Shown here in pieces: positions 24,034 to 41,423 of a stretch of DNA of 46,710 nt. The DNA lies in contig JALWJX010000078.1 of the NCBI GenBank assembly GCA_026996895.1, positions 1 to 46,710 on the forward strand. The letters run 5' to 3'. The position numbers and the translations under genes are program-made. The notes under the pieces are model-generated. The model did no database searches. It saw only the letters and a program-made list of their open reading frames with translations, and was not told the DNA's origin. The stretch is from Candidatus Kapaibacterium sp. GTDB lineage: Bacteria > Bacteroidota > Ignavibacteria > Kapaibacteriales > WFXC01. Numbering within the stretch: the first letter of the stretch is position 1; each line of letters begins with the position of its first letter.

Positions 24034-26085
24034 TTATGGCAGCACAACTTTCCGGACCTTTGAGGGCAGACTATATGCTCCGGAAAGAGAGCGTGCTCGA
24101 ACGCGGTAATAACACACAGGCTGGCAAAGAATCGCCCGATCTACAAAGTGGCGAGTCTGGGGGGATAAAAGAGGGCTGATGGGTACGAAGCGGCGACCAT
24201 CAACGCTCCGTTCCACCAGAAAACTATGAATTGGAGGTGATTTGTATGGATAGGAGAAAAACAGGGTGACAGCATTGGGTTCAACAGCTACTGAATCGAT
24301 CACAGGGGGTGGCGGTGGGGTATGCAAATACGTGTGTCCCTGGACACGAGGTGCGAAGGCGGAAAGGTTCCCGGCGCTGTCCAGCGCAGCCAGCGTATAC
24401 CAGTACGTTTGTCCCGGCAGAACGGTAGAGTCAATGTATACGGTTGTGTTTTTGGGTAACGGCTGCTGCGTCAGCCGCAGCGGTGGCAGTGTGGTGTCCT
24501 GGTAACGGAAGAGAAGGTATCCGTAGAGATCAGGGTCGTACGGTGGTTGCCACCGGATGATCAGCGCGTTCGGTCGTGCCTGGACACCAATGATCCACGG
24601 AGGATGAGGCGGTACAACGTCCGGAAGCCGAACAGCAATGGGAACACTCCAGCGACTCCGATTTCCAGCCCGGTCAACAGTTCGGACTCGATACCAGAAG
24701 GTGGTACGCCCTGCTTCGACTGGCAATCTATCGACAAAGGTGGTGTCCGTTAGCAGGGAATCAGAAACGAGAGTAAATTCCCCGCGCTGGGGATCGATGC
24801 TCCGCACCACTTCATAAGCGTAGGCATCTTGCGACTTGCTGGATTGCCATCGCAACGTGATGGTACCCACGGCTGGTGTTGCCTCAATGTTTGTCGGCGG
24901 TGCTGGCGGAATGGTGTCGGGTTGCGGAACGGCGTGTGGAAGGGAGAAATTGCTTTCGCGACCGTATTGGTCGACGGCGGTTACGGCGTAGACAATGTAT
25001 TCAGCACTGGTTTGAGGCTGATCCACGAAGAAAGTATCCCGAATCGGCTGTGCGTTCATACGCTGCTTTTGATCCTCCTTTGCCCATTCCCATCGGTATA
25101 GGTTGTAGCCAACGACTCGAGTATCGGGGGACGGGTGCCACCGAACAAAGACTCGCCCTCCAATGGTTGTGGCAATGACCGCAAAAGGAGGAATAAGTGG
25201 ACGGGCATCCATTGCTGCAACGATCACTGAATCGGAGGGAGGGCTGGTTCGGAACAGCAAGTCCACCGAGCGGATGCGGTACCAGTATTGAGTGCCCAGG
25301 GTGAGACCCGTGTCCAGATACAGGTATTGAGTGGGCAGGTCGGGATTGAGCAGTAGGGCTCGCACCGGTTCCTGTGTCAGTTGCTCCCAGGTCTTTTGAT
25401 TCTCTTGCCGGCGTTCGACGATGTATCCCCAGATACCATTGGCACGGGCAGAGCGAATGTCCCACCGTAACTGGATGTGGTTACTATCCGCTGGCTCCGC
25501 TTCCAGTCCAGACGGCGGCAGTGGCAATCGTTCCCCATTCCAGCGGACGGACCGCACTTCGCCAATGATGTTTCCTGCAACTTCAATCGCATAGTCGTAC
25601 GCAACGCCACGCTGCACCGTGGAATCTATCCATACAGTACCAAAAACTCGATGGAGCAGAGGAAAATCGATCAACAGCGTGGTGTTCAGGAGGTCGATGA
25701 TGAGATAGCGAACGCTATCTGGTAGATCCTGACGTTGCGCTTCCGCAATAAGCTGCCGCAGGGTGTCGGCGCCGGGATGACGGCGAATTTGAGTATCCCA
25801 CTGGTCGAAAGGAAGGAGTCTCTGGACGCCGATGGGCTGGTAAACTGTTTCACCAGCAATACGCCGCATAATCCGCCATGCCGACGGCAGCGGATGATCA
25901 TGAGGAAGCGACCATCCTAAGGCAATACCCTGCGGCGTGGAAAAGGTCCATAGCAAAAACGAACTCTTCTGTGACTGCGCTTCCGTACGGCTCACCAGGA
26001 GCAGCGCAAGCAGACAGATCCACAGAGCATTGAAGGTCCAAACAGCACCCCTTTTCTTTGTCACACGCATCCAGCACTTCCTCAT
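24034..26085 (-). CDS. Secreted fibronectin type III repeat protein
   Basis: Signal peptide MRKCWMRVTKKRGAVWTFNALWICLLALLLVSRTEAQ from ATG 26085 (preceded by AACAAAGGG). Multiple FN3 repeats with ...YWYRIRSVD/YWYTLAALDSAGN patterns. Confidence 0.85.
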   Translation of the reverse strand: MRKCWMRVTKKRGAVWTFNALWICLLALLLVSRTEAQSQKSSFLLWTFSTPQGIALGWSLPHDHPLPSAWRIMRRIAGETVYQPIGVQRLLPFDQWDTQIRRHPGADTLRQLIAEAQRQDLPDSVRYLIIDLLNTTLLIDFPLLHRVFGTVWIDSTVQRGVAYDYAIEVAGNIIGEVRSVRWNGERLPLPPSGLEAEPADSNHIQLRWDIRSARANGIWGYIVERRQENQKTWEQLTQEPVRALLLNPDLPTQYLYLDTGLTLGTQYWYRIRSVDLLFRTSPPSDSVIVAAMDARPLIPPFAVIATTIGGRVFVRWHPSPDTRVVGYNLYRWEWAKEDQKQRMNAQPIRDTFFVDQPQTSAEYIVYAVTAVDQYGRESNFSLPHAVPQPDTIPPAPPTNIEATPAVGTITLRWQSSKSQDAYAYEVVRSIDPQRGEFTLVSDSLLTDTTFVDRLPVEAGRTTFWYRVRTVDRAGNRSRWSVPIAVRLPDVVPPHPPWIIGVQARPNALIIRWQPPYDPDLYGYLLFRYQDTTLPPLRLTQQPLPKNTTVYIDSTVLPGQTYWYTLAALDSAGNLSAFAPRVQGHTYLHTPPPPPVIDSVAVEPNAVTLFFSYPYKSPPIHSFLVERSVDGRRFVPISPLLSPQTRHFVDRAILCQPVCYYRVRARSLSGAYSLPSKVRKVVLP

Positions 26086-26131
26086 TAGCAGCCGTCCCTT
26101 TGTTGCTTCAGCCAGTGCTTGAGCAATCTTT

Positions 26132-29100
26132 TCACCGAGCGTTCTGGTCTTCACGATCTGTAGGTTGGCAAGGTACAGGAACCCATCCTGCGGAAATACA
26201 TCGGATACCCTGCAACTGAAATTCGGCAGATCCAGAGACCACTTCTATTCGTATTCCTACAACTTGGTAACTGTCGTGCGAATCATCCAGCGTTGCGACG
26301 CGGGGAGTCAGGCTAATCGGAATGGTAAGAGAATGACCCGGCAGCAATGCTGCTGGAAGCTGGACCTGAAGCGTCGTGGTGAGGGTTGTCGTGTCTTTTT
26401 CCGATTCAACAAATTTCTGGATATGCAGTTGCAACGGTGTTCCCGGATAAATTGGTGCGGTGCCAGCATTCCGAAGCTGTACCCACGCGCTGGGTGCTCG
26501 AAGATCCGGCGGTGATTGCCACCGGAGTGCTAATCGGAGTGTTGTTTGCAAGGAGGCATACGGCAGCTTTACAACTCGCCATTGTGCAATTGGACTGGGC
26601 AGTGCGTCCAGGAATGCTTGTGCTTCCGGGGAACTGGGTGTCCCGCTGGTTTTATAGATGCGGAATTCGTAAATACCGGACTGGAGGACAAAGCGATGGT
26701 GTCCATCGTCGATCCCAGCACTGGGAAGTTCAGCCGCAAACGGCTGGAAATAGCTGGTATCCAGCAGGAATCTGGTGCCGATGGGTATTCCGAGAATCCG
26801 CACCTGCATCGTGTCCTGCACCGGCGGCATCGGTGTCCCACGCCACCAGTATCGGCGACCCGTTCGCAGGTTTCGGATTTCCAGCCACCAATCCCGTCCC
26901 GGATGGAGCGCATAGAACGAAAAAACTGCGGTATCCAGAGCTTCGCGAACATCGATCTGGTCAATAGGACGAGAGGTTGCCAGCACACCAATCCATGAGC
27001 CAACTGGTCCCTGTCGAACGATCCCGGCAGAGGGCAGGTAAATAGCAAGCTGGGCAGCCAGCATCTGATCGGCGGTGCGGAACCAGATCGTGTCCCGCCG
27101 TGGTAATGCGGCTGATGGATTCGGTGATCGCATCGTGCCAGTGATCACCAGGCGGTACCACGAACCGGGAGTTAGCGCAGCATTTGCCCATGCACCAGGT
27201 CCTACAGAAATCTGCGGTGATAGCCGAGCCGTGTCATCCCCGAACTCAATGCCTAAATGCCAGGATTTGCGTACTGTTGTCCGGTCGTCCTCCATCTCAT
27301 CGAGCCGGAACTGGAGCGTGCCGCGGTCGATGTACCAGCATCGGGTTGAGGCACTGCCGGTACAGGTGTTGCTAATCGGCGCACCAAAAACTACTGTGAT
27401 TGTCGGCGTTGCCGGTTCGACTGCTGGGAATCCCGAAGCAGGATCGGTAAATCGGATGAAAGCCGGCGGTTGTTGTTGGGAGCGATTGTCTTCAGCCCAG
27501 TTATCCGCTTCATTTTCAAAGGTGCTGCAACTCCACCATCGTGCCTGATCTGTCAATATTGAATTGTTTCCTCCGGATTTTGCCCATTCTCTTCCACCGG
27601 ACGAAGCGCGAGCATAGTACCCATAACGGATCGATGGTCGACTCCCCAGCCAGTTGGGAACTGCAAGAGTATGGCTGCCTGCGGTGATCTGCACCTTGGG
27701 AACAGAAAGTTCCCCTTCGAGAACGCTGCCAAAAGTAAAGCCAATAGCTGCTTGCTTACACTTGTTCCCACCGCACGGTAACCAGTGCTGCGACAGCGCA
27801 ACCGGGGGATTGTTACGAATATGATCCCACGCCTGCGTTCCTTTCCAGCCCAAGGACCACCATCCGGAGTAATCAAAATTCACACTGGTGTTCAAAAATG
27901 CCCCGGCTTTTGCCCGTGCCCAGAAGGTCGAAGGGCGATTTTCCAGTTTGAGCGAATAGCGGAGACAAAGATCGGAGTTCAATGATAAGCCGGCGTGGAA
28001 GGGTACGTGTCCGATTCCTGCTACGTGAAGCAAAGCACCGGCAACACCGGCGCCCTGAATACTGCCGATGAATTGGCCTTCGGAGGGACATAACCGGAGG
28101 TACATCGTCGCTAAATCGAGGTATGCCCGGGCAACGACATCGGTGCCCAGTAGATTCGTACCAAAGCTTTCGTTCATATCCACCAGAATCCATCGCCGCT
28201 GCAGAGGACCAATTTGAAGACAGGGATTGCTGGGAGTAAAAGTCGTGCTGAACCCTGTGCCAATGCTGCTTAGATTCAGCAAATTGACCGTAACTGCGCC
28301 GCTCAGGCTGAGAAGCGGCACGTCGCTGGTATATCGGTACTGCGCTGCCAGCGTTCCAGATGCCAGCTTAATGGCAGGGAGTAGTTCTAAGTTCCCATCC
28401 AGACCCAGCTGGAAAGAGCTGCCCAGAGCTAAGGAAGAGGTGAGTCGGAACAGATATGCCTGAAGGGAAGGATCGGCAAAGAGCAATCCTGCTCGAAGGA
28501 GCAAATCAATGGTGTGATCAGGCACAATCGGCGGTGGGGAATTGAACCCGCTGCTGGTGATCAAATGATGGTTAAAGTTGTCAAGTCGCACATGCCAGCC
28601 AGCGCCCAGTATACCACCGACCAGATGAAAAGCACCGGGGATAATGGGAACTCCACCGGGAATGGCTGCTTCACCGCTCAGGTACCAGAAACGGAACGGC
28701 GAGCTTCCTTTGGTGCTACCGAAAGCAAAGTCAATCCCCGTCTGGAATCCTCCGAGACAGTCGAAGCGTCCGGTCAAACGACCGGTCATTCCACTGGTGA
28801 GTGTACTTCCATACGCAATGTCACCCCAGAAGAGCGTTCCGCTGATGTTGAGAGCCCCGCTGATGGAGAACTGGACGTGCGCACCGTCACTGACCATCCG
28901 CCCATCATCAAAGATGCGGAGCCGATGCAGGTACATCCCGTTGGCGCCGCCGCTCAATCCGGAAGCAGCAGGAATTTCGAAGCCGCCACTCAAACCTGCC
29001 CACCAGTGGCCCCCCTCATAGCCAATTCCGATTTCTCGCACCTGAATCGTTAATCCACCGATGTGAAGTCGAGCCCACGAGCTTATGTCAAACCAGCCAT

Positions 29101-31372
29101 CCGCATCTTCCAGTTGCACCTGTCCATCGTTCCAGATTCTCAAACCCGCAAGGTGTACGACGGCAGTCGGGTCGTTCGGTGGCGCCTGAAAATCGATATT
29201 GGTAAACTCTACGTAGCCGCGATGGGTGCCGACTTTTGCAATTTGTCCATTTTGGAGTCGGAGCATCGCAACCGGATTGGAAGGTGGCAGAGCTAAATTC
29301 ACACCGCCAAACAGGTCCAGAGTGCCAAGCCATTCAAATTGTGATCCGCGTTGGTGTCCGGCAAGGCGCAGGTAGAGACTGTCTAACCGTGCCCACTCAG
29401 TTGGTTTCTGAAGCGAAGCCGGGAGTTGGAGAAGACCGTTTGCCCGGAGCGTTGCAAGCGTATTCTGACAGAACCGGATTTTTGCTGAATCTAACCGGAC
29501 GGTAAATCCTGCAAGCTCGATAGGATGTGGCGGTACAAAGGTTGCCTCTCCTTCAAAGCTGGCAAGCAGATGTCCAGAGCCGTTTTCCAGAACAATATCG
29601 CGAATGTCCCATTGCAAAGTGTCTTGCTCCACGAGGAATTTAAGGTGAGCAGCAGGAATCCACAGTCCTTTCCACAGCGGATCGCTCCAGCTACTGATGC
29701 CGCACAGTGCTGGAGGAAATCCCGCCGGATTTTCCAGACTGGAAGCGTCCAGAATCAGGCTATCGAGCGACAACCAGATGGGCAATCCCACAACGCGGGC
29801 GTCTCGCAATGGAGCGTGAACGGTCAGGAGTAAGTTCACCTGTCCCGGTGAAATTTGACTTCGGAACACAAGCTGTACTGGCTGATCATCCACCGTCCAG
29901 CAGGCAATGGTTACGGTTCCGTCCAGAAAAGCGGTGGCGGTCCATCGGCTGCCGTCCCAGCGCAGAGCGACGGATAGCGTATCAAAGTGGAAGGTAAAAC
30001 AGTCGCCGATCGCTAAATCGATGCCTGAGCAGACCCATCCGGTCGGCAGTTCCAGCCGGAGGGAGTCCGGGAAGAATTCCAGGCTGTCCAGCGGTAGAGT
30101 TTCCGATATAACGCACGGCAGATCCCACGTTTGTCCGTTGAAAAACACATCTCCGTTCAGCAGTGCTCTATCGGGCGTAAAGCGCCATTCGTTGATTTCA
30201 AGACGGAATTCTGGATAGCCCGGAAAAATTTCTCGCATCCACGCTCCAGCTACTGCTACAACGCCGGCAACTACCCGTGCAACGCCGGGGGTGTCGGTAA
30301 CGGTGGCTTGCAAGTTGGTAAAGTGGACCGTCAAAGAATCATCCAGCCAGGGAATAAACAGCGTCCCAGTGCCACTGATGGAACATCCTCCGCCGGAGGA
30401 GCAGCGAACGGTGTCTCGAAGGCGGATCTCAAAGTATCCGATGCGCAACACGTGCACATCGACCACTGTGGCAGTGTCGCTTCCTTTCTGCTTCCCTTTG
30501 GGTTCCTTATCACCCAGCAGTTGCTCACGGGGTTGGTAGACAAAGGTAAAAGGTTCTGCCCGTCCATCAGGTGCAAACAGGGGGCGGTGGTAGGAATCGG
30601 TGACCTGGACGGTCCAGATATAAGTACGTCCCGGCTGAAGCAGCCCCAGCTCCGGCTGGTACGGAATGGTTGTCCCATCGTGGATTGTGTATTGCAGCAC
30701 CGGAGGGTTTTCAAGGTAGGCGTCCATAGGGGTCTGCCCTTCAAAGACCTCGAACACCTGAAGGGTGTAGAGAATCGGTTGGGGAGCAGCCGGAACGACC
30801 GGTGTCCATTGAAACCGTAGATCGGTCAGGGATCTTACCGTGTCTCTGTCGGCCGGCTGGAGGAGTACCGGTGGGGTGTAGAGGATGATAGTGAAGGAGC
30901 GGCAGTATTCTGGCAGGGGCGTCAGTGGCTCATGCGTTTGAGGATCCAACAACTGGAAGCAGAACTGATAGTGCCCAGCCGGAAGTCGACCGGAACGTTC
31001 CACTGATTTCCGGCTATCACCGTAGAAGTTAATTGCTTCTAATTGCAGAAAATCCTGAGCGTAGAATGTAGAAACTCCCGGTGGAATGGTGACTGGCTCC
31101 AGCTTGTCTACATCGGTTTCCGCCTGTAGCTCTCCGTCTAAGTAGAGCTTGACCTTGAGAATGGCCGCTTGCGGAGCAGATCCACTATTGTGGACAGTCA
31201 CCATTACCTCCTCGCGTCCAGCGATCCAATCCGCAAGGTAAGGACTGGGTTGCGGTGGCATAATGACAGTCACGCTCAGAGTTTGCGACCACACAGCTGT
31301 TCCGAAAGCAAGGAAAACCAGCAGACTGAACCACCAGGAATGTCCCCTCTCAGAAATAATTGCCGCTTCCAT
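26132..31372 (-). CDS. Giant (~1747 aa) secreted protein; N-terminal TANFOR-like/FN3-like region, large beta-rich middle region
   Basis: Start reassigned to ATG 31372 (MEAAIISERGHSWWFSLLVFLAFGTAVWSQ signal peptide). N-terminal pattern SPYLADWIAG...GRLPAGHYQFCFQLLDP...PPVLLQPADRDTVRSLTDLRFQWTP...LLQPGRTYIWTVQVTD. Confidence 0.75.
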   Translation of the reverse strand: MEAAIISERGHSWWFSLLVFLAFGTAVWSQTLSVTVIMPPQPSPYLADWIAGREEVMVTVHNSGSAPQAAILKVKLYLDGELQAETDVDKLEPVTIPPGVSTFYAQDFLQLEAINFYGDSRKSVERSGRLPAGHYQFCFQLLDPQTHEPLTPLPEYCRSFTIILYTPPVLLQPADRDTVRSLTDLRFQWTPVVPAAPQPILYTLQVFEVFEGQTPMDAYLENPPVLQYTIHDGTTIPYQPELGLLQPGRTYIWTVQVTDSYHRPLFAPDGRAEPFTFVYQPREQLLGDKEPKGKQKGSDTATVVDVHVLRIGYFEIRLRDTVRCSSGGGCSISGTGTLFIPWLDDSLTVHFTNLQATVTDTPGVARVVAGVVAVAGAWMREIFPGYPEFRLEINEWRFTPDRALLNGDVFFNGQTWDLPCVISETLPLDSLEFFPDSLRLELPTGWVCSGIDLAIGDCFTFHFDTLSVALRWDGSRWTATAFLDGTVTIACWTVDDQPVQLVFRSQISPGQVNLLLTVHAPLRDARVVGLPIWLSLDSLILDASSLENPAGFPPALCGISSWSDPLWKGLWIPAAHLKFLVEQDTLQWDIRDIVLENGSGHLLASFEGEATFVPPHPIELAGFTVRLDSAKIRFCQNTLATLRANGLLQLPASLQKPTEWARLDSLYLRLAGHQRGSQFEWLGTLDLFGGVNLALPPSNPVAMLRLQNGQIAKVGTHRGYVEFTNIDFQAPPNDPTAVVHLAGLRIWNDGQVQLEDADGWFDISSWARLHIGGLTIQVREIGIGYEGGHWWAGLSGGFEIPAASGLSGGANGMYLHRLRIFDDGRMVSDGAHVQFSISGALNISGTLFWGDIAYGSTLTSGMTGRLTGRFDCLGGFQTGIDFAFGSTKGSSPFRFWYLSGEAAIPGGVPIIPGAFHLVGGILGAGWHVRLDNFNHHLITSSGFNSPPPIVPDHTIDLLLRAGLLFADPSLQAYLFRLTSSLALGSSFQLGLDGNLELLPAIKLASGTLAAQYRYTSDVPLLSLSGAVTVNLLNLSSIGTGFSTTFTPSNPCLQIGPLQRRWILVDMNESFGTNLLGTDVVARAYLDLATMYLRLCPSEGQFIGSIQGAGVAGALLHVAGIGHVPFHAGLSLNSDLCLRYSLKLENRPSTFWARAKAGAFLNTSVNFDYSGWWSLGWKGTQAWDHIRNNPPVALSQHWLPCGGNKCKQAAIGFTFGSVLEGELSVPKVQITAGSHTLAVPNWLGSRPSIRYGYYARASSGGREWAKSGGNNSILTDQARWWSCSTFENEADNWAEDNRSQQQPPAFIRFTDPASGFPAVEPATPTITVVFGAPISNTCTGSASTRCWYIDRGTLQFRLDEMEDDRTTVRKSWHLGIEFGDDTARLSPQISVGPGAWANAALTPGSWYRLVITGTMRSPNPSAALPRRDTIWFRTADQMLAAQLAIYLPSAGIVRQGPVGSWIGVLATSRPIDQIDVREALDTAVFSFYALHPGRDWWLEIRNLRTGRRYWWRGTPMPPVQDTMQVRILGIPIGTRFLLDTSYFQPFAAELPSAGIDDGHHRFVLQSGIYEFRIYKTSGTPSSPEAQAFLDALPSPIAQWRVVKLPYASLQTTLRLALRWQSPPDLRAPSAWVQLRNAGTAPIYPGTPLQLHIQKFVESEKDTTTLTTTLQVQLPAALLPGHSLTIPISLTPRVATLDDSHDSYQVVGIRIEVVSGSAEFQLQGIRCISAGWVPVPCQPTDREDQNAR

Positions 31373-36631: not shown

Positions 36632-38149
36632 ATGGCAGATTCGGGATCGGGAATGCAGTGCAGTTTGGTAGAACGATACTTGCGTCGTAACACATCGCTC
36701 AGATTGCCTACGCGGCGGTGGATGCAGTTGCTGTTACTCCTTTGCATTGTGCCGCTGTATAGCTTCGGGCAGTGGCGATCCTTTCCGTCTATTCACAGTG
36801 AACAGGACCGATTTTTTCAACGGTGGCAATTTTCTTCCGAGGCAGCGTGGGATTCTCTACAGGGATGGCACGCTTCCGAAGCGCTTTCTGCTATCCACCG
36901 GTTTCGGCGAACGCCGTCCCGCCTTCGCGTAATGGGCTGGCATCCCTACTGGATGGGGACTCGATACAAACAGTACCGGTATGAGCTGTTGCACACCGTT
37001 GCTTATTTCTCCTATGCGGTTGATCCGCAAACGGGGTCCTATAAAACAATTCGGCAGTGGAAGACCACCGATCTGGTGCCGATAGCGCATCAATATGGAA
37101 CCAGAGTGGTGCTGTGTGTGACCAATTTCGGTAGTGATGCGAACCGTCAGCTTCTAACCAATCCGCAGGCGAAGCAGGTGCTGATCGATAGTCTTATTGC
37201 ACTGGTTAAGTTGCGCAATGCAGATGGGGTGAATATTGACTTCGAGCTGATTCCCTACCCGTGGCTGCGAGATTCCCTGACGGCGTTTTTGCGCCAGTTA
37301 GCAGATCGTTTTCATCAGGAGATTCCCGGCTCAGAAGTATCTATTGCATTGCCGGCGGTAGATTGGTACGATGTGTTCGACGTGGCGGCGTACAACGATT
37401 TTCTGGACTACTGCGTGATGATGGGCTACGAATATCACTGGACAGGTTCTGCTTATGCTGGTCCGGTTGCTCCCCTTTCTTGCGGAACGACCTGGAGTAG
37501 TTGGTGCGTGGATCGTTCGGTTTCAGCCTATCTTGCAAAGGGCTTACGGCCGGAAAAGTTATGGTTGGGCGTTCCGTATTATGGGCGAGAGTGGCCCGTT
37601 GCGGATACGATCCCGCCAGCAAAAGCAACGGGATCGGGAACTGCCTATACGTACGAACAGATCGTCAAGCATCGACTGAAGGAGGCTTCCTGGCACTGGG
37701 ACGAAAGCTCGATGACGCCGTACTATAACCGCCCGGCGCAGCTTCAGGGGTGGTACGATGACACGATGAGCTTGCGACTGAAATATCGCTATGCACAGCA
37801 GCGGCGGCTCGGAGGAATTGGCATCTGGGCGCTGGGATACGATGGGGATCGCCCTGAACTGTGGGAGCTGTTGCGCGAAACAACCACCACCGCTGCTTCT
37901 GAATCTTCCAGAGTTTCAACCGGTTGGCATTACCTTCGCCTGCCAGATCGCATCCTGCTGTATCCTCCTGCTCCAGCAGCGCTACCAGTGGAGGTGGAAG
38001 TCTATACGATGCTGGGACAACGAATTGCCCAGAGTCGGGTAGCAGGACAGCAACCCGTGGTTATTCCTTTGCCATCGGCAACGGCTCAGCCGATCTATCT
38101 GCGCATACGCACCGGTAATCGCTCGACCACCTTAGTCATTGTTCCGTAG
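36632..38149 (+). CDS. Secreted glycoside hydrolase family 18-like protein with T9SS-type C-terminal domain
   Basis: DGVNIDFELI (GH18 DxxDxDxE-like), MMGYEYHWTGS, LGVPYYGREW, LGGIGIWALGYDGDRPELW; C-terminal VEVYTMLGQRIAQSRVAGQQPVVIPLPSATAQPIYLRIRTGNRSTTLVIVP. True start may be 36722 (signal peptide MQLLLLLCIVPLYSFGQ). Confidence 0.85.
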   Translation: MADSGSGMQCSLVERYLRRNTSLRLPTRRWMQLLLLLCIVPLYSFGQWRSFPSIHSEQDRFFQRWQFSSEAAWDSLQGWHASEALSAIHRFRRTPSRLRVMGWHPYWMGTRYKQYRYELLHTVAYFSYAVDPQTGSYKTIRQWKTTDLVPIAHQYGTRVVLCVTNFGSDANRQLLTNPQAKQVLIDSLIALVKLRNADGVNIDFELIPYPWLRDSLTAFLRQLADRFHQEIPGSEVSIALPAVDWYDVFDVAAYNDFLDYCVMMGYEYHWTGSAYAGPVAPLSCGTTWSSWCVDRSVSAYLAKGLRPEKLWLGVPYYGREWPVADTIPPAKATGSGTAYTYEQIVKHRLKEASWHWDESSMTPYYNRPAQLQGWYDDTMSLRLKYRYAQQRRLGGIGIWALGYDGDRPELWELLRETTTTAASESSRVSTGWHYLRLPDRILLYPPAPAALPVEVEVYTMLGQRIAQSRVAGQQPVVIPLPSATAQPIYLRIRTGNRSTTLVIVP

Positions 38150-38640: not shown

Positions 38641-39430
38641 CGGACGGAAAATCTCCTTGTCGAACATCCGCGATATAGCGTTGTACCGCATCTGCGATGC
38701 GCTGGTAGAGGTGTTCATAGCGGCGGACAAAACGGGGGGAGAAGTCTATGGTGAGTCCCAGCATATCGGTGTAGACCAGAATTTGAGCGTCGCAATGAGG
38801 ACCGGCGCCAATGCCGATGGTGGGGATATCCAGCGACTCAGTGATTTGCCGTGCCAGCCGGGCTGGAATTTTTTCCAGCACGATGCTGAAGACTCCTGCT
38901 TCCTGGAGGATTAGGGCATCTTTGCGAATGCGTTCTGCCTCTGCTGGATCGACGCCGCGTGTTCGGTACGTGCCGAATTGATAAATGCTTTGAGGCGTCA
39001 ATCCCAGATGTCCCATAACGGGAATGCCCGTTTCCGTCAGTCGGTGGACGGTTTCCGCAATCCGTTCGCCTCCCTCCAGTTTGACCGCTTCCGCCCCTGC
39101 TTCTTTCATCAGGCGTCCCGCGTTGCGCAGTGCCTGTTCAGCCGAAATCTGGTAGGTAAGAAATGGCATATCGGCAACGACCATCGCGTATTGCACCCCC
39201 CGTTTCACCATCTGGGTGTGGTAGATCATCTGATCCAGCGTGACGGGCAGCGTAGTCGGGTGTCCCTGCAGGACATTCCCCAGAGAATCACCAACCAGGA
39301 GAACGTCGATCCCTGCTTCATCAAAAATTCGAGCAATGAGGGCATCGTAAGCAGTCAGACAGACAAAGCGTTCGTTGCGGTGCTTCATCTGCCGAATCGT
39401 TTCGGTTGTCACTTTTCGCCGTTTTTCCAC
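38624..39430 (-). CDS. panB: 3-methyl-2-oxobutanoate hydroxymethyltransferase
   Basis: [80 protein letters not shown]. Confidence 0.96.
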
Positions 39431-40167
39431 TGTTCTATCCTCTGATTTGTTGCACTGGTTTGCTTCGAGACTATAAAGGAAGATTGCGAGCTTTGTTCAG
39501 AATCTTTGCGTTGCAATCGCACGATCTCGCTGCGGATTTCTTCGATGATTTCAGGATTGAGAATTCTTTTCTCTTTGCCTTCCGAGATGGAGAACACGAG
39601 GAAAACTTTACCGCCAAATTCCTGGGTGAACTGTTGGTGTGTCTGTGAAAGCCAGTCCTGCCATTTATGAAATTCTGGAGTTTTGAGGGTAGCTGATAGG
39701 CTTGATTTGCGAGTCGATGTAGTGTTTGCTACAGCAATGCAAAAATCTACATTGTATCGCCTGTCCCATTCGTCGGGCGCAGGTTGGATTTCTACGCCCA
39801 GTGCCTGGGACAGTTGTTGATATACGGTAGCGATTTCTGTTTGATACCCTGCAAAGGTTCGGTCAATGACCAGATTTCGAATGTACTGAATACAATCTTC
39901 TTCTGCGACCGACTCAATCTCAGATCGTAACACCTCGGAAATTTTGATGTACAGTTTTTGACCTAAGTCACGAAGATAGGCTTCGGGAGAGAGAGGAATG
40001 CCTTTTTGCCGGAGGAAAGAAGAAAGTTTCTTGAAGTGTTCGGACTTCCATTCTGCTACGGATTTCGGGGCAACGTCGCGAATCCATTCGGAGACTGGGC
40101 CGACACGGGATTTCTTGTTGAGACCCCATCGATTGGTCGCGATGTTTAAAATCCATTCCTTCGCCAT
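39409..40167 (-). CDS. Type II restriction endonuclease (MjaI-like candidate), catalytic strand apparently out of frame
   Basis: Start overlaps the methyltransferase stop (TAATG). [33 protein letters not shown]...[14 protein letters not shown]. Family assignment from recollection of MjaI-type enzymes, not a search. Confidence 0.7.
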
Positions 40168-41423
40168 TACTGGTGCTCCTTTTCAAGCTGGACGAATTTT
40201 TGCTTATACGGATGTTCTACTCCCCGGTCGGCTTTTGCCCATCCTGCTTTGATGAGGTATGCGTTGATGAAAATCTTGTTTTTGAGAAAAACGTACGCCT
40301 CTACTTTCTGATCGTCGGTTTTCAGTTCGCCAGAGTGGCTGTTTGGAGATGCGAATTTGAGCAGAACCGGTTTTTTGAGAATTCGGCTTTTGAGATATTC
40401 CATCGCCTTTTTTCTGTCGGAAATCACAATGCCCAGGAATCGAACGCGAAGCCCTGAATCGAGTTCAACGGTATCCTCGCTGAGGACTCGGACAACTTTA
40501 TGGAGCGTGGGTTGCTGACTCTCCCACTTTTGGGGATCAAGTTGCGGAGTAGCATTTTGGATTCTGGGAGTATACGATACGGGTTTGGGGCTGACGACTT
40601 CCTGCTGTTTCTCAATCTGTACCGAAGGGGCGAAAAGAGAACTTTCAGTGATGCCGATTTTGCTTTTGATTGTTTCAACAAACGCCGGGTTGATTTCGTA
40701 ACCAATAGCGTTGCGCTGGAGACCCAAAGCAACCTTTGCTGTCGTTCCGCTGCCGAGGAAAGGATCGAGAACAGTGTCATTGACGAAGGAGAACATCTTG
40801 ATCAGCCTTTTGGGCAACTCTTCAGGAAACATTGCTTCGTGTTCCTGCTGGCGGACGCCGGGAAATGTCCAGTGACCGGAGAAATATTCTTTCCATTCCT
40901 CTTTGTGGAGTTGGGATTGGTGTTTTAGTGCAGAAGGGACCTTTGGAGATTTGCCCGGCTTTTTGAAAATCAGGATGAATTCGTAGTCAATCTCAATCAT
41001 ACCATTGGGAGGATAGGGATACGACCCCATCACGGGAGCACCGCCAGTAGTTCGCAGAGTGGTTTTCTTCTGCCAGATGATGGCGCCCATATAATCAAAA
41101 CCCAGGGATTCGCATTGCGCGATCAATTCAGCGTGCAGGGGGATGATTTTATAGCGCCCATAGATTGTGGATCGAGCAAATTGGTCGCCGATGTTGATAC
41201 ATAAGCGACGCCCTGGTTTCAGGACCCGGTGAGCTTCACTCCAGACGCGGTACAGGTCGATGAGGTATTCGTGCAGACTTTGTCCATAGCCAATTTGCCC
41301 CGGTATCCCGTAATCCTTGATGTGCCAGTAAGGGGGAGAGGTGATGATGAGGTCAATGGAATTGTCAGAGATTTCTCCCATATTGCGGCTATCACCGATA
41401 ATAATTCGTGCCCAATTCCGCAT
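40167..41423 (-). CDS. Site-specific DNA methyltransferase (beta-class order, probable m4C) with C-terminal nuclease-like (SNase/TNase-fold) domain
   Basis: Motif IV TSPPYW near the N-terminus, motif I region VNDTVLDPFLGSGTTAKVALGLQRNAIGYEI later; C-terminal HKVVRVLSEDTVELDSGLRVRFLGIV...VEAYVFLKNKIFINAYLIKAGWAKAD. Confidence 0.88.
   Translation of the reverse strand: MRNWARIIIGDSRNMGEISDNSIDLIITSPPYWHIKDYGIPGQIGYGQSLHEYLIDLYRVWSEAHRVLKPGRRLCINIGDQFARSTIYGRYKIIPLHAELIAQCESLGFDYMGAIIWQKKTTLRTTGGAPVMGSYPYPPNGMIEIDYEFILIFKKPGKSPKVPSALKHQSQLHKEEWKEYFSGHWTFPGVRQQEHEAMFPEELPKRLIKMFSFVNDTVLDPFLGSGTTAKVALGLQRNAIGYEINPAFVETIKSKIGITESSLFAPSVQIEKQQEVVSPKPVSYTPRIQNATPQLDPQKWESQQPTLHKVVRVLSEDTVELDSGLRVRFLGIVISDRKKAMEYLKSRILKKPVLLKFASPNSHSGELKTDDQKVEAYVFLKNKIFINAYLIKAGWAKADRGVEHPYKQKFVQLEKEHQ

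What the first reader, a model, noticed from the sequence alone, without database searches (positions are those of the whole stretch)
26132..31372. Giant ~1747-aa secreted protein with TANFOR-like N-terminus, paired with an FN3 protein
The signal peptide is followed by a region (LADWIAG...GRLPAGHYQFCFQLLDP...LRFQWTPV...LLQPGRTYIWTVQVTD) that resembles, from memory, the N-terminus of very large uncharacterised Bacteroidota proteins, some annotated TANFOR. The middle ~1000 aa is repetitive beta-rich sequence with no family I recognise. The FN3-repeat gene starts only 46 bp downstream, so the two look like one secreted or cell-surface module.
Basis: partly seen in the sequence, partly recalled or inferred. 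Interest (0 to 1): 0.62.

Follow-up and report, generated by a model that had tools for sequence, protein, structure and literature searches.

The report
Giant TANFOR-like protein with FN3 partner
A Kapabacteria genome encodes a 1,746-residue exported protein, followed by a fibronectin-type-III protein in a gene pair that is conserved across its order and in much of its phylum; its head domain belongs to a phylum-wide family that is elsewhere paired with, and sometimes fused to, an undescribed large outer-membrane barrel, which suggests how such giant proteins are docked or exported.

Summary
The gene is real: window 26132-31372, MINUS strand, 1,746 aa, signal peptide, no family over cut-off; the genome is a Candidatus Kapaibacterium. 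The FN3 pairing is conserved: 49 of 65 giants surveyed across the phylum have the FN3 gene immediately downstream. The head (residues ~30-285) is in the TANFOR superfamily but far below the TIGR02542 cut-off. It does not look like a TANFOR polymorphic toxin: the C-terminus is conserved in this branch, and no toxin or immunity gene was found. The 'repetitive' middle has no sequence repeats; AlphaFold gives a long all-beta body without a PDB match.

New: the head co-occurs almost perfectly (57 of 58 genomes, against 4 of 190) with an outer-membrane protein that has no family model. It is usually a neighbouring gene and is fused to the head in four genomes; one fusion models as two Ig-like domains plus a ~26-strand barrel. 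In the window the barrel gene is not adjacent, but three copies lie elsewhere in the genome. Best reading: the head docks on this barrel, and body plus FN3 protein form a non-toxin envelope or surface structure. Docking is inferred; the export route is unknown (T9SS is present, but the giant has no recognised T9SS tail).

The parts
26132..31372 (-). Giant secreted protein, 1,746 aa (ATG 31372): signal peptide, TANFOR-like head, all-beta body, conserved C-terminus
   Evidence: Frame and translation; full-length relatives
30518..31285 (-). TANFOR-like head, residues ~30-285, two Ig-like domains (by homology with the modelled fusion L138)
   Evidence: Head profile A2, own match 1.8e-121; weak TIGR02542; AlphaFold of the homologous head in L138
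27023..30520 (-). Body, residues 285-1450: long antiparallel beta strands, no known fold
   Evidence: AlphaFold pLDDT 74, pTM 0.52; no PDB match
26135..26571 (-). Conserved C-terminal region, residues ~1601-1746, shared by families f1, f4, f5, f6 and f9; no toxin or T9SS sorting family
   Evidence: Alignment and sub-profile m1600; no Pfam/NCBIfam hit
24034..26154 (-). FN3 partner protein, up to 706 aa (GTG 26154, or ATG 26085)
   Evidence: Pfam fn3 1.2e-11; conserved as next gene

Best explanation
A two-gene secreted cassette of the TANFOR superfamily that is structural rather than toxic. Both proteins have signal peptides and are expected to cross the inner membrane by Sec (read from sequence). 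The giant's TANFOR-like head docks on a dedicated ~26-strand outer-membrane barrel, which this genome encodes elsewhere (inferred from fusion, adjacency and co-occurrence in relatives). The long all-beta body extends from that anchor and the co-expressed FN3 protein binds it, giving an envelope-anchored or surface-exposed adhesive or scaffold structure (inferred). Whether the barrel exports the giant (as TpsB does TpsA) or only anchors it (as SprF anchors SprB) is open. In the fusions the head is N-terminal to an even-stranded barrel, which by the usual topology of outer-membrane barrels puts it on the periplasmic side.
For: FN3 gene next in 49 of 65 giants, often overlapping, against 11 of 477 other genes in the same loci. 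Barrel-family gene within three genes on the same strand of 47 of 65 giants, directly upstream of 34. Head and barrel fused in L107, L121, L122, L138, none of which was in the profiles' training sets. Strong head and strong barrel hits coincide in 57 of 58 genomes, against 4 of 190 without the head. Own genome has three barrels, each beside a head paralogue; G018 and G010, with the window type as their only head match, encode an unlinked barrel. Fusion model pLDDT 84, pTM 0.81: Ig-like head plus 26 strands. Body and C-terminus conserved, no toxin family.
Against: No barrel gene is adjacent in the window branch, so its use of the barrel is indirect. No interaction was modelled or measured. Co-occurrence counts ignore shared ancestry and the E-value thresholds were chosen by me after seeing the lists. 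The body model is only moderate (pTM 0.52). Surface exposure of the giant is not shown. A binding of the FN3 protein to the giant rests on gene order alone.
Confidence: 0.5

Rival explanations
1. A T9SS-exported surface adhesin: the T9SS translocon carries the giant out, and the barrel and FN3 protein are accessory surface factors, the barrel acting as an anchor in the manner of SprF/PorP.
For: T9SS is present (SprA_N 1e-38; over 50 CTD matches over the cut-off). T9SS genomes and substrates are enriched around TANFOR genes (PMC7073777). A barrel anchoring a giant adhesin is precedented by SprF-SprB (PMC9143113).
Against: No type-A CTD on the giant in the genome-wide search, and no NCBIfam hit other than weak TANFOR. 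PorP-like proteins are 14-stranded, whereas this barrel models with ~26 strands.
Confidence: 0.22
2. A periplasmic structural protein that never leaves the cell: the head attaches to the inner face of the outer-membrane barrel and the beta body lines or spans the periplasm.
For: No recognised outer-membrane sorting signal; in fusions the head should face the periplasm (plus general topology rule); long alternating-hydrophobicity strands whose weak fold matches include LptD.
Against: Fold matches are at TM about 0.1 and mean little. FN3-rich partners are typical of extracellular proteins (general knowledge). A relative with the same head carries a nuclease-toxin end, which would need to leave the cell (L125).
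Confidence: 0.17
3. A TANFOR polymorphic toxin with an unrecognised C-terminal toxin domain.
For: Same head superfamily; FN3 genes enriched near TANFOR genes (PMC7073777); some relatives carry toxin ends, e.g. L125 Col-Pyo_DNase 3.9e-41.
Against: The C-terminus is conserved over several families of the order; no toxin family is found; the downstream gene is a 706-aa FN3 protein, not a small immunity gene. The clear toxin-tailed relative has no FN3 partner.
Confidence: 0.06

Closest known systems
TANFOR-domain polymorphic toxins of Bacteroidetes (TIGR02542; PMC7073777)
   Same: Sec signal, homologous head, very large protein, FN3 gene nearby, T9SS-bearing genome
   Different: Below the family cut-off; C-terminus conserved rather than polymorphic; no toxin or immunity gene found. 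The paper sections read do not mention the barrel.
SprB-SprF and PG1035-PorP (type-B CTD protein anchored by a barrel; PMC9143113)
   Same: Giant exported protein genetically linked to an outer-membrane barrel in the same phylum
   Different: PorP-like barrels are 14-stranded FadL-family proteins that bind a C-terminal CTD; here the linked domain is N-terminal, the barrel models with ~26 strands, and no CTD was found
Two-partner secretion (TpsA/TpsB)
   Same: Large beta-rich protein whose N-terminal domain would be recognised by a paired barrel (analogy only)
   Different: No POTRA domains seen in the barrel model; FhaC appears only as a poor match to the body; no homology to TpsA or TpsB found
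MtrB and FimD/PapC ushers (large outer-membrane barrels)
   Same: Best fold matches of the barrel fusion (prob 1.00; TM normalised by target 0.33-0.44)
   Different: About 9-11% identity; no ORF under 1,500 aa with three or more CxxCH in the fetched loci; pilus genes were not among the annotated neighbours

Membership tests
TANFOR domain family TIGR02542 | score over the curated cut-off (67 bits) | tested here: not met
   15.5-20 bits; no genome searched reached the cut-off
TANFOR domain family TIGR02542 | homology of the head to proteins found by TIGR02542 | tested here: met
   head profile A2 hits nearly all of them at 1e-28 or better
TANFOR polymorphic toxins (PMC7073777) | polymorphic C-terminal toxin domain | tested here: not met
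   conserved C-terminus, no toxin family
TANFOR polymorphic toxins (PMC7073777) | downstream immunity gene | tested here: not met
   next gene is the FN3 protein
TANFOR polymorphic toxins (PMC7073777) | T9SS in the genome | tested here: met
   SprA_N and CTD matches
T9SS cargo (type-A CTD, TIGR04183) | C-terminal sorting domain | tested here: not met
   no match on C78:26132-31372, none in NCBIfam scan
Extracellular contractile injection system | tail-sheath gene in the genome (PF04984) | tested here: not met
   no match; positive controls rang
Two-partner secretion | TpsB with POTRA domains | tested here: not met
   barrel fusion model shows Ig-like head and barrel only; no Pfam POTRA or TpsB hit for barrel members scanned
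Head-barrel export or anchoring system (proposed) | physical binding of the head to the barrel | not testable with these tools
   no complex prediction available; only fusion, adjacency and co-occurrence

The most novel reading that the evidence does not exclude
TANFOR-superfamily proteins, toxins included, are recognised through their N-terminal head by a dedicated, undescribed ~26-strand outer-membrane barrel that exports or anchors them: a Bacteroidota-wide giant-protein system separate from canonical T9SS CTD sorting, of which the window pair is a non-toxin branch whose barrel is encoded in trans.
Probability: 0.33. Interest if true: 0.82.

Novelty: new variant of a known kind. Interest (0 to 1): 0.6.

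Why it matters
How TANFOR proteins leave the cell is open: the 2020 paper could only hypothesise T9SS export. A barrel family that coincides with the head in 57 of 58 genomes and is fused to it in four gives a specific candidate partner and makes the question directly testable. It also shows that part of the TANFOR-like giants are conserved proteins with an FN3 partner rather than toxins.

Tried and rejected
PDB sequence search of the giant: only chance-level hits. PDB profile searches with head and body: none. Foldseek of the body: LptD/ApoB-type long beta sheets at TM about 0.1, not a match. Contractile injection: no sheath match. Porin-cytochrome conduit, suggested by the MtrB fold match: no multihaem ORF under 1,500 aa in the fetched loci. 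Tandem or internal repeats: none. Two alignments for the fusion model misplaced the start of the barrel against the head and were replaced by A8. The search for related loci found only near-identical records. The ~685-aa gene after the FN3 gene in genus g5 is a PPIC-type peptidyl-prolyl isomerase, not a general partner. Proteins over the TIGR02542 cut-off were sought to compare directly, but none turned up.

Full report
What is there. The genome (2.7 Mb, 138 contigs) belongs with Candidatus Kapaibacterium: a 94%-identical orthologue is on WFXC01000016.1. The surrounding genes look like housekeeping genes (dnaG, recO, a homogentisate dioxygenase gene divergent upstream, an Mla-type transporter, a GH18 protein). 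Pfam and NCBIfam give nothing over cut-off for the giant. The FN3 protein is confirmed.

Conservation. 48 of 61 related genomes carry a homologue. The closest full-length relatives (36% in the multiple alignment, 38-39% in pairwise matches) align to the C-terminus; family f9 members lack residues of roughly 1290-1600 but keep the last ~100. The C-terminus is therefore not polymorphic in this branch. The body is essentially confined to the order: outside it only short weak matches were found.

Pairing with the FN3 gene. In the relatives of the window branch whose downstream side was fetched, the FN3 gene is the next complete gene. Over 65 giants from 55 genomes of the phylum it is next in 49, mostly overlapping or within a few tens of bases, against 11 of 477 other genes in the same loci. 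The loci were chosen by head matches, and close relatives are among them, so the counts are not independent events.

TANFOR. TIGR02542 reaches only 15.5-20 bits (cut-off 67). A profile of 32 window-family heads finds 79 of 248 phylum genomes, and nearly every protein that TIGR02542 detects in the phylum and order searches is also found by the head profile, much more strongly (the weakest locus, L180, gave no head match). The superfamily is shared; formal family membership is not met. Jana, Salomon and Bosis (PMC7073777) described TANFOR proteins as polymorphic toxins, noted FN3 enrichment nearby and hypothesised T9SS export. Among 53 C-terminal regions I scanned, toxin families were rare (Col-Pyo_DNase, LHH and a weak TNT), and the clear DNase-tailed example, L125, has no FN3 partner. 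The window branch has none.

The barrel. A frequent neighbour of these giants is a protein of about 520-660 aa with no Pfam or NCBIfam family (one member matches outer-membrane barrel models weakly). A gene of this family lies within three genes, same strand, of 47 of 65 giants. In four loci (L107, L121, L122, L138) head and barrel are one polypeptide, and these were in neither training set. At genome level strong head hits (E <= 1e-20) and strong barrel hits (E <= 1e-40) coincide in 57 of 58 genomes, against 4 of 190 without the head; I chose the thresholds after seeing the lists, and shared ancestry inflates the nominal P of 4e-50. In the window branch the barrel is not adjacent, but the own genome has three copies, each beside a head paralogue, and G018 and G010, whose only head match is of the window type, still encode an unlinked barrel. 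The fusion L138 models at pLDDT 84, pTM 0.81: two Ig-like head domains, a low-confidence linker and 26 barrel strands by my count (the first strands rest on four sequences). The best fold matches are MtrB and the FimD/PapC ushers, at 9-11% identity.

The body. Residues 285-1450 model at pLDDT 74, pTM 0.52 as long antiparallel strands, best over residues of roughly 300-900, with alternating hydrophobicity (mean lag-1 autocorrelation -0.34). No solved structure matches (TM about 0.1). There are no sequence repeats.

Mechanism. Shown: gene order, homology, fusion, co-occurrence, modelled folds; signal peptides are read from sequence. Inferred: the head docks on the barrel; since the N-terminal domain of an even-stranded outer-membrane barrel is expected in the periplasm (general knowledge), docking would be from inside; body and FN3 protein then form an anchored structure, either exported or left in the periplasm. 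T9SS is present and could export the giant, but no sorting tail was found. The toxin reading is disfavoured.

Verdict. A real, conserved, apparently non-toxin branch of the TANFOR superfamily, with an unreported outer-membrane partner of the superfamily as the main new lead. 'Unreported' means: absent from Pfam and NCBIfam and not found in the open-access papers searched.

Noticed in passing
L156 244-7186; L157 528-7478; L158 637-6987; L159 1201-7746; L162 602-6062: A long (797-915 aa) branch of the barrel family sits in a separate conserved operon: a ~340-400-aa protein (head-like in L156/L157), a FecR-domain protein, the long barrel protein and a CHASE2 plus adenylate/guanylate cyclase protein. 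Looks like an undescribed envelope sensory operon.
   Followed up: partly
L137 456-18423 (G000:C136): A second head-bearing giant (3,264 aa) in the same genome, followed by a barrel, an Omp28-like protein with a marginal T9SS tail, an FN3 partner and a TPR protein.
   Followed up: partly
L041 6906-11957 (G040): The window-type giant is broken into several frames in one relative while its FN3 gene is intact; assembly error or pseudogene.
   Followed up: no
window 39409-41423: MjaI-type restriction endonuclease gene next to an N6/N4 DNA methylase gene, minus strand: an ordinary restriction-modification pair.
   Followed up: no
window 36632-38149: GH18 protein whose C-terminus looks by eye like a T9SS type-A sorting domain, although the genome search did not list it.
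   Followed up: no
L114, L117, L118, L120, L135, L119 (G073:C7): Head-bearing giants of about 3,900 to 6,400 aa occur elsewhere in the phylum.
   Followed up: partly
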